This document shows positions 25,799-32,290 of a stretch of DNA of 42,797 bases, piece by piece. This stretch comes from Chitinophagales bacterium (GTDB lineage Bacteria; Bacteroidota; Bacteroidia; Chitinophagales; JADIYW01). Positions within the stretch are counted from its first letter, which is position 1; every line of letters starts with the position of its first letter. Where the stretch lies: contig JAIBAX010000040.1 in the NCBI GenBank assembly GCA_019694955.1, forward strand, positions 1-42,797, read 5' to 3'. A program made the translations under genes and the position numbers. The notes beneath the pieces were generated by a model. That model saw only the letters and a list, made by a program, of their open reading frames with translations. It searched no databases and had not been told where the DNA came from.

Positions 25799-26674
25799 TT
25801 AGAAATCTCCGAAATTCACTTGAAAGCAAGGGATTTTGAGTTCGTCACGCCACATGTTTACTACCTGATTTCTATCATCCAAGATAAACTCAACATAGAA
25901 TTTTCCCAACACATATTGCTCGAAAAACTCTCGCTTTACGATAGCGTCTTTCCTTTGATCTTTTTCATCCCTCATCACCAATAAGTCATAGGCAATACCG
26001 TGTTCTTTCAACCACGATTCTGTTTCTGAACGATAGGTGCCAAACCTTCCAGAAAGCAAGATAATATGATAACCCATTGCCTTGTAGCTTTTTAGAACGT
26101 TTGCCACCGGTTTATTGAGGACATCTTTTATACAAGCTTTTGCCATGTAAGGGTCTCTGCCATTAAGCAATGCCAATGTGCCATCCAAATCACAACAAAT
26201 GGCTTTCGGAAGCTGCTCATCCTGTTGTGCATACAGGTTCTCATCGCTGTAAAACTGGCGAAACATATCCCGGATGACTTTCTCCCCTACCCGGTTTGTT
26301 CTTTCGCTGTCACGGGCAATACACTCAGTAATCGATGTTTCCATTTCATGTATCTCTACCTTTACCGTTTGCTCGAAAGTTTTATTGTATTCCAAAACCA
26401 ATTGCTCGATGCGAAGATGGCTTCTTGGGGAAAGGTTGGTATCATCAACGATGACACTCTTGCCATCTTTCAGTGCTTCCACAATCAGTATATCCCTGAT
26501 TTTCTTGATAAACTTCTCATTGCCACGGTTGGTAATGCCGTTGTCGAACATCATCCGCAATTCATCTCTATTGATGCGCTTGAAAGTATAGGGGTGTTCT
26601 GATAATAAATTTCTGGCAAAGGTAGATTTTCCACTTCCTGGAAGACCTTTCATGATGATTACTTTTCTGTCCAC
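25799..26674 (-). CDS. Polynucleotide 5'-kinase / 3'-phosphatase (T4 Pnkp/PseT-like)
   Basis: 291 residues, close to T4 Pnkp (301). The N-terminal kinase has the P-loop GLPGSGKST (10-18), VIVDDTNLSPR (~74-84) and a lid-like RDSERTNRVGEKVI (~121-134). The C-terminal HAD phosphatase has DLDGT at 162-166, LLSGRFGTYR and the acidic motif FILDDRNQVVNMW. Domain order is the same as in T4. The enzyme removes 3' or cyclic phosphates and adds a 5' phosphate, making broken RNA ends ready for ligation. Its start lies 1 nt after the nucleotidyltransferase stop, so it is the last gene of the coupled repair run. Confidence 0.92.
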   Translation of the reverse strand: MDRKVIIMKGLPGSGKSTFARNLLSEHPYTFKRINRDELRMMFDNGITNRGNEKFIKKIRDILIVEALKDGKSVIVDDTNLSPRSHLRIEQLVLEYNKTFEQTVKVEIHEMETSITECIARDSERTNRVGEKVIRDMFRQFYSDENLYAQQDEQLPKAICCDLDGTLALLNGRDPYMAKACIKDVLNKPVANVLKSYKAMGYHIILLSGRFGTYRSETESWLKEHGIAYDLLVMRDEKDQRKDAIVKREFFEQYVLGKFYVEFILDDRNQVVNMWRDELKIPCFQVNFGDF

Positions 26675-26675
26675 T

Positions 26676-27338
26676 TTATCCGTATTTAAATTCTTTAATG
26701 TTATTACTGTCTAATAATTTTTGCCACAAAGGATGGTCACATGAATCGACATAGTATGTCTTTAATGCTTGCGCATCATATTGTCGATTCAATTCGGCAC
26801 GCAGAGCCTGCTCTTTTTCTATTAAGTCCTGAACATCTTGCTTAGAACCATGCAAATCCTGAATCCCCTGAATGGTTGGCAACTGATTTTGTAGCAACTG
26901 TTCTGCACAATACAGGCTTCGTGCCGCATGGTATAATTTGTGCGTACCTTCCTTTATCTGCTTTAAGTCACGCTTGCCAAAGCCCAAATATGCCTTAATG
27001 ACTTTATAGGTGCGACAAATCTCTAAGCTATTTTGCCAATCGCCGCTAAAGAGGACAATATCCGCATTGATAGTGGCATCTCCACTGAATAGGTTCTTCC
27101 AAAACTGCAACTCAGAGCAATATATCCAATCTATCGATGGCGAAGATTCTTTGTATTGAAACTGATGGCCGTTCGGCAATCCGGACGCCTTCTCTACTTC
27201 AGAAGTGCGATATATGCAAAGATAATCTATATCGGAATCAGGGCGTGCCAAGCCATACAAATGGCTTCCCATCCTATACTTTTTAATGACAAGCCCTTGC
27301 AGAAACACGTGTTCTTCCTGTTGTATGATAATATTCAT
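26676..27338 (-). CDS. YcgL-type predicted nucleotidyltransferase
   Basis: 220 residues. The nucleotidyltransferase (DNA polymerase beta-like) signature GSHLYGLARPDSDIDYLCIY spans residues ~24-43. G-S plus the SDID pair are the sites for nucleotide and metal. A later segment, SIDWIYCSELQFWKNLFSG, supplies the third acidic region. The C-terminal half is helical (YHAARSLYCAEQLL). COG3541-like proteins are found with RNA ligases and kinases in phage and bacterial RNA-repair clusters; the exact reaction is unknown. It overlaps the ligase gene by 4 nt and is followed after 1 nt by the Pnkp gene. Confidence 0.85.
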   Translation of the reverse strand: MNIIIQQEEHVFLQGLVIKKYRMGSHLYGLARPDSDIDYLCIYRTSEVEKASGLPNGHQFQYKESSPSIDWIYCSELQFWKNLFSGDATINADIVLFSGDWQNSLEICRTYKVIKAYLGFGKRDLKQIKEGTHKLYHAARSLYCAEQLLQNQLPTIQGIQDLHGSKQDVQDLIEKEQALRAELNRQYDAQALKTYYVDSCDHPLWQKLLDSNNIKEFKYG

Positions 27339-28360
27339 GCTATGTCTTCTTTAAATGGTTTTTGAAATATCGGTCTAATTCTTTTCCAAATATCTTTATC
27401 ATAAGGTTTCTTATCAAGCATTAAAAATAATACGGAAGGATAAGCGCAGGTTTGAAAGTATAATGCGGCTTCTTTTCTCGTTTCAAACGATTTATAATCC
27501 TCTAAACATTGCTGTTCAATGGCTTCATATTGGCGGAGCAATTCAGCACGTGTATTTTTTACCCATTGATAAAATTCATCGGGCACTTTATGTAGGATGT
27601 CTTCAAAACCGTCTCCTCTCATCAAGTATTCCCAAATATCGATAGATGACACTTGTGTAACAATTCTATGCACACGCATGTACTCGTCGAATTTTATTTT
27701 ATAACGCAAACCGCCTTTGAATTTTACGACATACCCTTCTCGGTTATATTGATTTTCTATTTTCAATGTTCTAATATCTGTAATGCCGTTATAATGTTTT
27801 ACTAAAGGGAAACCGATATCTTCTAATACTTCATCATTTCCGGATGCTGTATCGATAATGGCTAACAAGACCAATTCCTCCCTCTTTCCATAGTCAACGA
27901 CAATCCTATTTTCCGGATAGATAATCTCGAAGACATATGTCTTGTCTTTTTTTAAATGAGGAAATGCATGTTGATACTTATCATACAACATCTCTGTTGC
28001 TTTGATGGCTTGTTCGCTCAAAAAAGAGCCTCTGGAAGCTATGAAAGGTTGGTCGTTTAACCAATATAGTATTCCCATTGAACCGTCCATTTTCTCATAT
28101 ACTTCAAAAGATTCATTCGGAATATCTGTATATCCGTGGTCGCCGAAGTTGAAGAATTTTTGAAACGGTCTGGCAATGATTTCATCTTCTTTATTCAAAA
28201 TCAAGCCTCTACACATCATGGTGACTTCATTCCAAACCCAGTCATACTGAGCCATGTCTGTATAATTATAGATAAACAAATCCGCATCAGGATGTTTTTG
28301 CACCTTCACGTATTTTTTTTCTATCATTTCATTCAATAAGCTATGGTTTATTACACACAT
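27335..28360 (-). CDS. T4 Rnl1-type RNA ligase
   Basis: 341 residues from the ATG at 28360, one nt after the stop of the upstream peptidase gene; the longer frame to 28462 would overlap that gene by 100 nt. Motif I, with the lysine that takes AMP, is EKMDGS with K90. Motif III is the FEIIYPENRIV segment, motif IV is EGYVVKF and motif V is YKIKF. These match the T4 RNA ligase 1 family (RNA_lig_T4_1), which seals 3'-OH and 5'-phosphate RNA ends, classically in cut tRNA anticodon loops. Pnkp, two genes downstream, would make exactly those ends. Confidence 0.92.
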   Translation of the reverse strand: MCVINHSLLNEMIEKKYVKVQKHPDADLFIYNYTDMAQYDWVWNEVTMMCRGLILNKEDEIIARPFQKFFNFGDHGYTDIPNESFEVYEKMDGSMGILYWLNDQPFIASRGSFLSEQAIKATEMLYDKYQHAFPHLKKDKTYVFEIIYPENRIVVDYGKREELVLLAIIDTASGNDEVLEDIGFPLVKHYNGITDIRTLKIENQYNREGYVVKFKGGLRYKIKFDEYMRVHRIVTQVSSIDIWEYLMRGDGFEDILHKVPDEFYQWVKNTRAELLRQYEAIEQQCLEDYKSFETRKEAALYFQTCAYPSVLFLMLDKKPYDKDIWKRIRPIFQKPFKEDIA

Positions 28361-28361
28361 C

Positions 28362-31136: not shown

Positions 31137-31231
31137 TATATTTATTTTCAAATAACCGACAAAATTTATTATAAAATATTGATTGTCATAATTATATGAT
31201 TAAAAATATTTTTATTTCAAGCACAAGTGAT

Positions 31232-31239
31232 TATATTTG
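31232..31239 (+). promoter_or_regulatory. -7 box of the WYL regulator gene
   Basis: TATATTTG is an exact TAnnTTTG, 37 nt before the ATG at 31277. It overlaps a TTGCG half-site resembling the operator at 31114-31136, which suggests autoregulation. A second TATATTTG (31123-31130) lies inside the operator itself. Confidence 0.5.
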
Positions 31240-31276
31240 CGCAGATAGATTGCGTAATTAAATTAAAAAATACTAA

Positions 31277-32290
31277 ATGCCAGTCAACAAACTCGCTTTA
31301 TTGCGGTATAGAATTATCGATAAATGTCTACAAAACAGGTTTCGCAAGTGGACATTAGAAAACCTTATTAACGAGGTTTCAGACGCTTTGTATGAGTATG
31401 AAGGCATAAAATCAGGCGTTAGCAAACGCACCATCCAGTCGGATATACAAACCATGCGCAGTGATAAATTGGGTTATAATGCGCCCATCATCGTTAAAGA
31501 CAAAAAATTTTATGCTTATGAGGATAAAGAATATAGCATCACCAACGCCAATATCAGCAAACAGGATATAGAAAAATTGACAGAAATCATTAAACTCCTC
31601 AATCAATTCAAAGGGTTCAATTATTTTGAAGACCTGAGTGAGATGGTGGGCAAGCTGGAAGATAAAATCATCAAGCAGCGCAATTCTCATGAGATTTATA
31701 TCGACTTTGAGAAAAACGAGTTGGTAAAAGGTTTGACGTGGATAGACCCGCTGCTGGATGCATTAAAAGGCAAACAACCACTGGAAATATCCTATCAATC
31801 CTTTAAGGCAAAGCAGCCTTCGAGGCAGTATATCATTCCCTATCTTTTAAAGGAGTACCGCAACAGGTGGTTTCTACTTTGCAGAAACAACAAAAGAAAG
31901 GAAATCATGTTGTTGGCACTCGACAGGATGGTGGAGATAAGAAATACAGATTATATCGACTATATAGAGCCGGAATTTGATGTGGTAAGTTTCTTTGATG
32001 ATGTGATAGGTGTTACAAAGTCTTTACATCAACCCACCACAAAAGTAGTTTTGTCGTTTGATAAAAACAATGCGCCTTATGTGCTTACGAAACCGATCCA
32101 TTCCTCCCAGCAAGTATTGAAACAATCTGACGAAGCACTCATTATCAGTATAAATGTGGTGATAAATTTTGAATTGGAAAGGGAAATCTTAGGATATGGC
32201 GAGTCGGTTAAAGTTTTATCACCAAGGGCACTCAAATCTAGAATTATTAATAAGTTTAAAATGGCTTTAGAGCAGTATCAATACAATTAA
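31277..32290 (+). CDS. WYL-domain transcriptional regulator
   Basis: 337 residues. The N-terminal winged helix-turn-helix (residues ~5-80) includes RYRIIDKCLQN and SGVSKRTIQSDIQTMRS. The WYL region (~155-235) contains the segment LEISYQSF and a YIIPYLLKEYRNRWFLLC stretch, followed by a C-terminal WCX-like domain (~245-330). WYL proteins sense nucleic acids or nucleotides and often control defence or DNA-damage operons. Because this gene is divergent from rsr with an operator between, it is likely to sense damaged RNA or nucleotide signals, comparable in role (not in fold) to RtcR. The signal is inferred. Confidence 0.9.
   Translation: MPVNKLALLRYRIIDKCLQNRFRKWTLENLINEVSDALYEYEGIKSGVSKRTIQSDIQTMRSDKLGYNAPIIVKDKKFYAYEDKEYSITNANISKQDIEKLTEIIKLLNQFKGFNYFEDLSEMVGKLEDKIIKQRNSHEIYIDFEKNELVKGLTWIDPLLDALKGKQPLEISYQSFKAKQPSRQYIIPYLLKEYRNRWFLLCRNNKRKEIMLLALDRMVEIRNTDYIDYIEPEFDVVSFFDDVIGVTKSLHQPTTKVVLSFDKNNAPYVLTKPIHSSQQVLKQSDEALIISINVVINFELEREILGYGESVKVLSPRALKSRIINKFKMALEQYQYN

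What the first reader, a model, noticed from the sequence alone, without database searches (positions are those of the whole stretch)
25799..32290. Ro60 / tRNA-like RNA array / peptidase / ligase / nucleotidyltransferase / Pnkp island under a WYL regulator
Seen: a TROVE-vWA protein, repeated tRNA-like elements, an S24-type peptidase, a T4 Rnl1-type ligase, a YcgL-type nucleotidyltransferase and a T4 Pnkp-type enzyme lie in this order on one strand, with a WYL regulator divergent. Known: Ro60 orthologues with Y RNAs are linked to RNA repair in some bacteria (rtcBA with RtcR). Pnkp plus Rnl1 heal and seal cut tRNA in phage T4. Inference: here the rtcBA/RtcR role is taken by a T4-like pathway and a WYL switch, with a multi-copy array. 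The system may protect against tRNA-cutting toxins or nucleases. I do not know of a description of this exact combination, but cannot search.
Basis: partly seen in the sequence, partly recalled or inferred. Interest (0 to 1): 0.93.

Follow-up and report, generated by a model that had tools for sequence, protein, structure and literature searches.

The report
Ro60–Y RNA island with T4-style repair
A stretch of bacterial DNA carries, as one switchable unit, a Ro60-type RNA-binding protein, four small RNAs shaped like rearranged tRNAs, and the enzymes that mend cut RNA ends; comparison with about a hundred relatives suggests it is a tRNA-repair kit whose sealing enzyme is exchanged between species while the switch and the small RNAs stay.

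Summary
One strand carries Ro60 (TROVE-vWA), four tandem Y RNAs, a fifth conserved tRNA-like RNA, an S24-type protein, a T4 Rnl1-type ligase, a nucleotidyltransferase and a T4-type Pnkp; a WYL regulator is divergent. A covariance model built without window sequence finds exactly four Y units here (E 1.5e-31 to 1e-6) and no other in the genome. Their tRNA half is circularly permuted, as in YrlA. In about 95 Bacteroidota relatives the Ro60–Y-array core persists while the ligase slot holds RtcB (29) or Rnl1, usually with Pnkp (7, window included), with several exchanges on the Ro60 tree. A palindrome, ACTRCGCA-N7-TGCGYAGT, precedes Ro60 in 82/96 loci (perfect and unique in this genome at 31114–31136); it also precedes Rnl1 in genomes without Ro60 and unlinked copies of the same WYL gene, so it is very probably the WYL operator. 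Some relatives, and phages, add arrays of extra tRNA genes. Best reading: an inducible, WYL-controlled tRNA-repair operon with a Ro60–Y RNA scaffold in which a T4-like heal-and-seal pair replaces RtcB. The kind is known; this variant, the operator, the arrays and the fifth RNA appear undescribed in what I could read. The key 2016 survey was not readable.

The parts
31277..32290 (+). WYL + WCX transcriptional regulator (N-terminal helix-turn-helix inferred, not detected by Pfam)
   Evidence: Pfam WYL 44.5 and WCX 44.9 bits; same family divergent from Ro60 or Rnl1 in relatives
31236..31258 (.). second, imperfect copy of the operator palindrome next to the WYL start
   Evidence: 3 mismatches to the consensus
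31114..31136 (.). operator ACTACGCA-N7-TGCGTAGT, perfect palindrome, upstream of Ro60
   Evidence: only exact match in the 4.1 Mb genome; 96 sites in 33 kb upstream of Ro60 genes against 40 in 1.75 Mb elsewhere in the same loci
31098..31105 (-). -7-like promoter element TAAATTTG (Bacteroidota type) 8 nt after the operator
   Evidence: TTTG at 11-12 nt after the operator end in 77 of 81 loci
29539..31056 (-). Ro60 homologue (TROVE + vWA)
   Evidence: PF05731 104 bits; alignment A1, 49-65% identity to 10 relatives, DVSGS of the vWA domain conserved; PDB Ro60/Rsr matches
29321..29470 (-). Y RNA 1: Ro-type double stem plus permuted tRNA module (T arm, acceptor, D arm)
   Evidence: R1 122.9 bits, E 1.5e-31; Rfam YrlA 34.4 bits, below the gathering score 69; fold
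29212..29303 (-). Y RNA 2: same stems, T arm only
   Evidence: R1 43.9 bits, E 4e-10
29074..29202 (-). Y RNA 3: outer stem, weaker inner stem, T arm; about 80% identical to units in Flavobacterium loci
   Evidence: R1 31.4 bits, E 1e-6; blastn
28964..29060 (-). Y RNA 4: both stems, short insert without a recognised T arm
   Evidence: R1 50.2 bits, E 7.8e-12
28743..28922 (-). conserved about 180-nt RNA with an unpermuted tRNA frame (acceptor, D arm, variable hairpin, T arm) and a long domain in place of the anticodon arm
   Evidence: R2 175.4 bits (the window is a member of this model); full-length copies in 9 Ro60 islands and once per genome in 7 whole genomes; no Rfam match for a relative
28362..28685 (-). 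S24-type (LexA/UmuD-like) peptidase domain without a helix-turn-helix; Ser and Lys of the presumed dyad present
   Evidence: PF00717 32.3 bits; 71-78% identical copies in L085, L106, L107, L119, L264
27335..28360 (-). T4 Rnl1-type RNA ligase, catalytic motifs intact
   Evidence: PF09511 63.6 bits; A2: KxDGS, RGSF, EIIYP, EG motif IV, KxK motif V invariant in 6; T4 Rnl1 structures E 6e-21
26676..27338 (-). nucleotidyltransferase (Pol beta/MNT fold; GS-x9-SDID motif), RlaP-like
   Evidence: NTP_transf_2 over cut-off, RlaP 0.8 bit under cut-off; no close relative in 390 Bacteroidota genomes
25799..26674 (-). T4-type polynucleotide kinase-phosphatase
   Evidence: P-loop, DLDGT, SGR, DDR invariant in 7; Pnkp1 4xrp and T4 Pnkp 1ltq

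Best explanation
The island is one inducible RNA-repair operon, most likely for cut tRNAs. SHOWN by sequence: genes and RNAs lie on one strand with 1-nt gaps or 4-nt overlaps from S24 to Pnkp, behind a single operator/promoter in front of Ro60; the four Y RNAs have a covarying Ro-type double stem and (unit 1 in full) a circularly permuted tRNA module; enzyme active-site motifs are intact; the slot for the sealing enzyme is exchangeable (RtcB or Rnl1-Pnkp) under the same operator. INFERRED: the WYL protein binds ACTRCGCA-N7-TGCGYAGT over the -33 region and releases (or activates) transcription when it binds a product of RNA damage; Ro60 with Y RNAs forms an RNP whose tRNA-shaped arm recruits or presents broken tRNAs or tRNA-handling enzymes; Pnkp removes 2',3'-cyclic/3'-phosphate and phosphorylates the 5'-OH, the nucleotidyltransferase restores or caps 3' ends, and Rnl1 seals. 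The role of the S24 protein is open.
For: Gene content and motifs. Y RNAs: two stems paired 97.6% and 96.5% against 65% and 70% when 3' strands are re-dealt; T arm in 167/202 units against 1 in shuffles, T before D in 80 and D before T in 3; A4: 24 of 29 pairs changed on both sides, 97.7% paired against 72% shuffled and 35-51% slid; window hits with an independent model. Ligase exchange: RtcB in 29, Rnl1 in 7 of 95 Ro60 loci; the 7 Rnl1 rows need 6 changes on the Ro60 tree, at least 3 forced by supported branches; L055 has RtcB and a Pnkp C-terminal fragment. Operator: about 125-fold enriched upstream of Ro60, within 60 nt upstream of Rnl1 in 9 of 16 fetched Rnl1 loci (8 of those 9 without Ro60), and 0.5-0.8 kb upstream of unlinked WYL genes in 7 of 9 Chryseobacterium-group genomes but at none of 4 WYL paralogues. 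Linked extra tRNA genes in relatives, 163 of 164 on Ro60's strand. Precedent: rtcB-Rsr-Y RNA operon induced by tRNA fragments (PMC7790460).
Against: No expression, binding or enzyme data. Rnl1 is linked to Ro60 in few loci (2 of 11 genomes with a strong Rnl1 match in the phylum sample), so the two need not act together. Fifty-one of 95 Ro60 loci show neither ligase within reach, so Ro60/Y RNA has a role that does not need a neighbouring ligase. The nucleotidyltransferase could not be folded (pLDDT 34.5) and is only borderline RlaP. The window lacks the tRNA array that makes the tRNA link strongest in relatives.
Confidence: 0.72

Rival explanations
1. The Ro60-Y RNA part is an RNA-decay/quality-control particle (as Deinococcus Rsr, tethered to PNPase by Y RNA) that merely shares a stress regulon with an independent repair cassette.
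For: 51 of 95 Ro60 islands show neither ligase nearby; Rnl1-Pnkp cassettes occur without Ro60; Deinococcus precedent cited in PMC7790460.
Against: RtcB or Rnl1 lies downstream of the Y array on the same strand in 36 loci, in several independent exchanges; in the window the whole set follows one operator.
Confidence: 0.15
2. The Y RNAs are decoys: permuted tRNAs with anticodon-loop pieces bind and occupy anticodon nucleases, and the enzymes repair what is cut anyway. This is compatible with the main reading.
For: 26 of 79 permuted units keep an anticodon-loop signature at exactly the tRNA distance (-17) from the T stem, against 0-5 at other offsets and 1.8% in shuffles, with many different anticodons; window unit 1 reads CTCTTAA and matches 29 of 34 nt of the 3' half of the genome's tRNA-Thr in register. 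Hughes et al. raise the competitive-inhibitor idea for YrlA (PMC7790460).
Against: The 5' strand of the anticodon stem is mostly missing, so a true substrate shape is not restored; units 2-4 of the window lack a clear permuted module.
Confidence: 0.2
3. The array is a decayed tRNA cluster (pseudogenes, phage remnant) without function of its own.
For: Relatives carry real tRNA arrays at the same place; phage contigs carry similar sets; some islands elsewhere are broken (L263).
Against: Strong covariation of stems and conserved loop sequences across 26 divergent units; all four window units score; the reading frames in the window are intact.
Confidence: 0.04
4. The operon is an anti-phage or abortive-infection device in which the nucleotidyltransferase or S24 protein is the effector and the ligase pair an antidote.
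For: WYL regulators commonly govern defence systems (PMC9122601, PMC4012209); a HEPN AbiV-type gene lies next to Rnl1 in one related island (L266).
Against: PADLOC matches only the WYL regulator and a weak DruF similarity of Pnkp; no nuclease or toxin gene in the window operon.
Confidence: 0.08

Closest known systems
rsr-yrlBA-rtcBA operon with RtcR (Salmonella; Hughes et al. 2020, PMC7790460)
   Same: Ro60 homologue plus Y RNA with tRNA module plus RNA ligase, one strand, divergent regulator; induced there by damaged tRNA
   Different: RtcB/RtcA and the sigma-54 CARF regulator RtcR are absent; Rnl1/Pnkp/nucleotidyltransferase and a WYL regulator instead; four Y RNAs in tandem and an extra tRNA-like RNA
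Modular RNA-repair systems surveyed by Burroughs & Aravind 2016 (10.1093/nar/gkw722, not held; cited in PMC7824862)
   Same: From my memory of the abstract: TROVE and Band-7 scaffolds with Y RNAs or a tRNA-like RNA, diverse ligases, a nucleotidyltransferase, kinases/phosphatases, strong shuffling
   Different: Could not be read; whether this gene set, the operator, the tandem arrays or the fifth RNA are in it is unknown
Phage T4 Pnkp + Rnl1
   Same: Same two enzyme families with intact motifs; heal-and-seal logic
   Different: Bacterial chromosomal operon with Ro60/Y RNA and regulator; TIGR02308 equivalog cut-off not reached (78.5 of 242 bits)
Bacterial Pnkp1-Rnl-Hen1 complex (PMC4411300)
   Same: Same T4-type Pnkp (4xrp best PDB match of profile A3); Hen1 and PNKP-ligase genes lie next to Rnl1 or Pnkp in related islands L064, L101, L127, L264, L266, L267
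   Different: Hen1 and the PNKP-ligase type Rnl are absent from the window
WYL regulators BrxR/CapW (PMC9122601, PMC9122588)
   Same: WYL domain regulator with inverted-repeat operator in front of defence operons
   Different: Different operator; ligand and direction of control untested here
Anabaena TrcR regulon (PMC10272220)
   Same: A silent 26-gene tRNA operon, rtcB and a slipin gene under one regulator, induced by translational stress
   Different: Different regulator family, no Ro60/Y RNA reported, genes not in one island

Membership tests
Ro60/TROVE | TROVE domain plus vWA (MIDAS) domain | tested here: met
   PF05731 104 bits; vWA_Ro60 25.6 bits (cut-off 27.7, slightly under); DVSGS, TNG and FTD motifs present
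NCBIfam Rsr equivalog (NF041674) | curated score | tested here: not met
   33 of 900 bits: a distinct Ro60 subgroup
Bacterial Y RNA, YrlA-like | Ro-type stem formed by both ends enclosing a tRNA module in permuted order | tested here: met
   (unit 1 complete; units 2-4 reduced)
Rfam YrlA RF02553 | gathering score 69 bits | tested here: not met
   34.4 bits in the window, 45.2 bits in L051
Bacterial Y RNA, YrlA-like | bound by Ro60 in vivo | not testable with these tools
   inferred from adjacency in bacterial and phage loci
rtcBA/RtcR RNA-repair operon | rtcB (with rtcA) under RtcR | tested here: not met
   neither in the window island; RtcB occupies the slot in relatives
T4 Rnl1 ligase | nucleotidyltransferase motifs I, III, IV, V | tested here: met
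   A2; PF09511 over cut-off
T4-type Pnkp | P-loop kinase fused to HAD phosphatase (DxDGT) | tested here: met
   A3; PF25109 159.6 bits
Pnkp1-Rnl-Hen1 complex | Hen1 methyltransferase present | tested here: not met
   no Hen1 in the island
RlaP nucleotidyltransferase | PF10127 gathering score 23 | tested here: inconclusive
   22.2 bits over 28 residues; structure prediction failed
BrxR/CapW-type WYL regulators | WYL + WCX domains and a palindromic operator in its own promoter region | tested here: met
   DNA binding itself not tested
BrxR/CapW-type WYL regulators | repression relieved by a ligand | not testable with these tools
   operator overlaps the -33 region; compatible with repression or activation

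The most novel reading that the evidence does not exclude
The island is a translation-rescue kit shared by Bacteroidota and phages: tandem Y RNAs are a set of rearranged tRNA 3'-half mimics of several isotypes, working with exchangeable repair ligases, with spare, strongly divergent tRNA genes in some relatives, and with a new island-specific tRNA-like RNA (28743-28922), all under one WYL operator that can be read from sequence.
Probability: 0.35. Interest if true: 0.82.

Novelty: new variant of a known kind. Interest (0 to 1): 0.64.

Why it matters
What bacterial Ro60 and its tRNA-shaped Y RNAs do in RNA repair is open. Here the same Ro60-Y core is found with two unrelated sealing chemistries in nearly identical strains, which gives a natural swap experiment. 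The operator makes the regulon of the WYL switch predictable in any genome and points to a testable inducer. The tandem, isotype-diverse Y arrays and the linked divergent tRNA sets tie the system to tRNA damage more directly than any single locus could.

Tried and rejected
Plain folding of the whole array: no better than shuffles (z +1.2), because units fold one by one; the unit-wise test replaced it. A first search for stem partners with 9-nt arms mis-registered the 3' strand and was replaced by the two-stem search. Search for close viral relatives of the ligase: none. Standard TAnnTTTG promoter search after the operator: rare (3 of 81), but TTTG itself is at fixed distance. AlphaFold of the nucleotidyltransferase: unusable. 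PDB search with the nucleotidyltransferase: nothing meaningful. Idea that the window array is a run of ordinary tRNA genes: rejected (ARAGORN none). Idea that the fifth RNA is tmRNA: only its T arm matches in the window, and its relative in L066 has no Rfam match. Burroughs & Aravind 2016, Chen 2014 and Sim 2020 are not held, so novelty is judged without them.
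Full report
OBSERVATION. Alignment with relatives places the ligase start at 28360 and the S24 start at 28685, which leaves 1-nt gaps or 4-nt overlaps from S24 to Pnkp, the layout of one translation-coupled operon (sequence). ARAGORN sees no ordinary tRNA in the window; Rfam at permissive threshold sees one YrlA-like module, 34.4 bits, under the family's gathering score of 69.

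Y RNAS. The repeated motif reads GYCGUAG-N6-UUACUUCG. In unit 1 the RNA folds with the 5' and 3' ends paired, then T arm, acceptor stem, loop, acceptor stem, D arm: a tRNA in permuted order, as in YrlA. Over about 100 related loci I collected 252 candidates in 93 loci; each has an outer stem (7 nt), a conserved internal loop with a 9-nt 3' side (most often GCTTTTTAC) and an inner stem (8 nt). 181 of 252 exceed the 99th percentile of shuffled downstream sequence; stems pair at 97.6% and 96.5%, against 65% and 70% when 3' strands are re-dealt among units (partners were chosen for pairing, in the shuffled control too). A T arm is inside 167 of 202 units (1 in shuffles) and precedes the D arm in 80 against 3. 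On an alignment of 26 divergent units without the window, 24 of 29 pairs change on both sides, 97.7% of cells pair (72% shuffled, 35-51% when slid), covariation 0.748 against 0.222. The covariance model from these 26 finds four units in the window, E 1.5e-31, 7.8e-12, 4e-10, 1e-6, and no fifth; no other copy in the genome.

TRNA LIKENESS. In 26 of 79 permuted units the seven bases 17 nt before the T stem, where a tRNA has its anticodon loop, fit Y-U-NNN-R-A; other offsets give 0-5 of 79 and shuffles 1.8%; the triplets are varied (CAT, GAT, TTT, GTT, CTT, TGG, TCG and others). Window unit 1 reads CTCTTAA there and matches 29 of 34 nt of the genome's tRNA-Thr from the anticodon loop to the T arm, in register. 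The unit is thus a 3' tRNA half, starting in the anticodon loop, joined through the acceptor end to a 5' half. Tandem duplication of a tRNA gene would produce this order; that is a conjecture.

NEIGHBOURHOOD. Ro60 is patchy: 33 of 299 genomes of the order, none of the 12 listed same-family genomes, 31 of 395 of the phylum. Around Ro60 the core is: divergent WYL gene (39 of 95), Y array, then a ligase: RtcB in 29 (family checked), Rnl1 in 7, usually with Pnkp. Other recurring parts are RlaP nucleotidyltransferases, Hen1, a PNKP-ligase type enzyme, Band-7, S24 and TatD. On the Ro60 tree the seven Rnl1 rows need six changes, at least three forced by supported branches, including exchanges among close Flavobacterium strains; L055 holds RtcB and a C-terminal fragment of Pnkp, a plausible scar. 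Fifty-one loci show neither ligase, most of them Chryseobacterium.

RNL1 WITHOUT RO60. The ligase family is in 7 of 299 genomes of the order and 15 of 395 of the phylum, 11 strongly. Of 16 fetched loci, 10 have the same WYL family and 12 have Pnkp; one (L269) has an intact Ro60 island 4.7 kb away, one (L263) a Ro60 remnant and a ligase frame with two stops, one (L270) Band-7 in the scaffold position, and four (L264-L267) an uncharacterised 746-aa protein. The Y model finds partial matches (the tRNA module without the Ro stem) in L270, L266, L267 and L268, and weak full-length ones in L264 and L265. This agrees with a modular system in which Ro60+Y RNA is one of several RNA-protein scaffolds.

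OPERATOR. Intergenic regions between WYL and Ro60 share ACTRCGCA-N7-TGCGYAGT. The core pattern occurs 96 times in 33 kb upstream of Ro60 and 40 times in 1.75 Mb of the rest of the same loci; 82 of 96 loci have it. In the window it is perfect at 31114-31136, the only exact match in 4.1 Mb, with a second, imperfect copy by the WYL start. A TTTG lies 11-12 nt behind the operator in 77 of 81 loci, which places the operator over the -33 region. It stands within 60 nt upstream of Rnl1 in nine of the 16 Rnl1 loci. Chryseobacterium islands lack an adjacent WYL gene, yet 47 of 56 such no-WYL loci have the operator; in ten genomes tested this way (eight Chryseobacterium, one Epilithonimonas, one Flavobacterium) a WYL protein 43-46% identical is encoded elsewhere, with the same palindrome 0.5-0.8 kb upstream in seven of nine Chryseobacterium-group cases, while four WYL paralogues have none. 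This is strong indirect evidence that this WYL family binds this site; ligand and sign of control are unknown.

EXTRA TRNAS AND A FIFTH RNA. In 16 of 95 islands at least three tRNA genes lie within -6.5 to +4 kb of Ro60, 163 of 164 on its strand; the Rnl1 loci without Ro60 have almost none. In L051 those that could be compared are 43-62% identical to the same-anticodon tRNAs of the same genome, and the tRNA-Leu lacks the long variable arm (only 20 canonical tRNAs were fetched, so not every anticodon has a partner). Phage contigs with Ro60 relatives carry Y units and up to 22 tRNAs. The window has no tRNA array but has an RNA at 28743-28922 that recurs full-length in nine Ro60 islands (window included), downstream or upstream of Ro60, once per genome in seven genomes searched whole. 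Its frame is a normal tRNA (acceptor, D arm, variable hairpin, T arm, covarying pairs) with a domain of more than 100 nt in place of the anticodon arm; its model also picks up ordinary tRNAs, and Rfam has no match to its relative in L066.

MECHANISM. See best explanation. Enzyme order follows established T4 biochemistry; the Ro60-Y role, the WYL ligand, and the S24 role are inference. RtcB joins 3'-phosphate/cyclic to 5'-OH directly, whereas Rnl1 needs Pnkp to prepare both ends; their exchange at one locus argues that the substrate break is the same kind, 2',3'-cyclic phosphate and 5'-OH, as left by anticodon nucleases (established knowledge).

KNOWN OR NEW. Ro60-Y RNA linked to repair is known (PMC7790460); TROVE as a repair platform with a tRNA-like partner is stated for phages and cells (PMC7824862); WYL control of defence operons is known (PMC9122601, PMC4012209); a tRNA array, rtcB and a slipin in one stress regulon are known in Anabaena (PMC10272220). 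I therefore class the island as a new variant of a known kind. The tandem permuted-tRNA arrays, the operator, the exchange of ligases in place and the fifth RNA were not found in the papers I could search, but the main 2016 survey could not be read.

Noticed in passing
L041, L042, L044, L046, L049, L051, L063, L076, L087, L090, L097, L107, L116, L119, L129, L132: Arrays of extra, strand-matched tRNA genes (up to 17) next to the Ro60 island; in L051 strongly divergent from the same genome's canonical tRNAs.
   Followed up: partly
window 28743-28922 (-) and L044, L061, L066, L071, L089, L104, L107, L132: Conserved 180-230-nt tRNA-like RNA with a large domain instead of the anticodon arm, no Rfam match, found full-length only in Ro60 islands.
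   Followed up: partly
L164, L173, L186, L187, L196, L213, L232 (IMG/VR contigs): Phage contigs with Ro60 relatives, Y-type RNAs and tRNA arrays.
   Followed up: partly
L264-L267 (e.g. L265:5536-7776): An uncharacterised 746-aa protein (weak Prok-RING_4) with a permuted tRNA-like RNA occupies the scaffold position in Ro60-less Rnl1 islands.
   Followed up: partly
L270:10422-11924: WYL - tRNA-like RNA - Band-7 - Rnl1 - Pnkp: Band-7 takes the place of Ro60.
   Followed up: partly
L266:8727-9368: HEPN AbiV-type protein next to Rnl1, a possible RNase inside the repair island.
   Followed up: no
L263:5690-8987: Decayed island: Ro60 remnant and a ligase frame with two stop codons.
   Followed up: no
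window 25580-25700: Short tandem run of GGAAATTTGGAGATTTG-like repeats between the SMC gene and Pnkp.
   Followed up: no
window 34979-35779: Fic-domain protein near, but outside, the island.
   Followed up: no
PDB 9l5y, 9kop: Solved 'TROVE domain-containing protein' structures are the closest solved relatives of this Ro60 group (E 2e-38), closer than animal Ro60 or Deinococcus Rsr; no paper was found.
   Followed up: no
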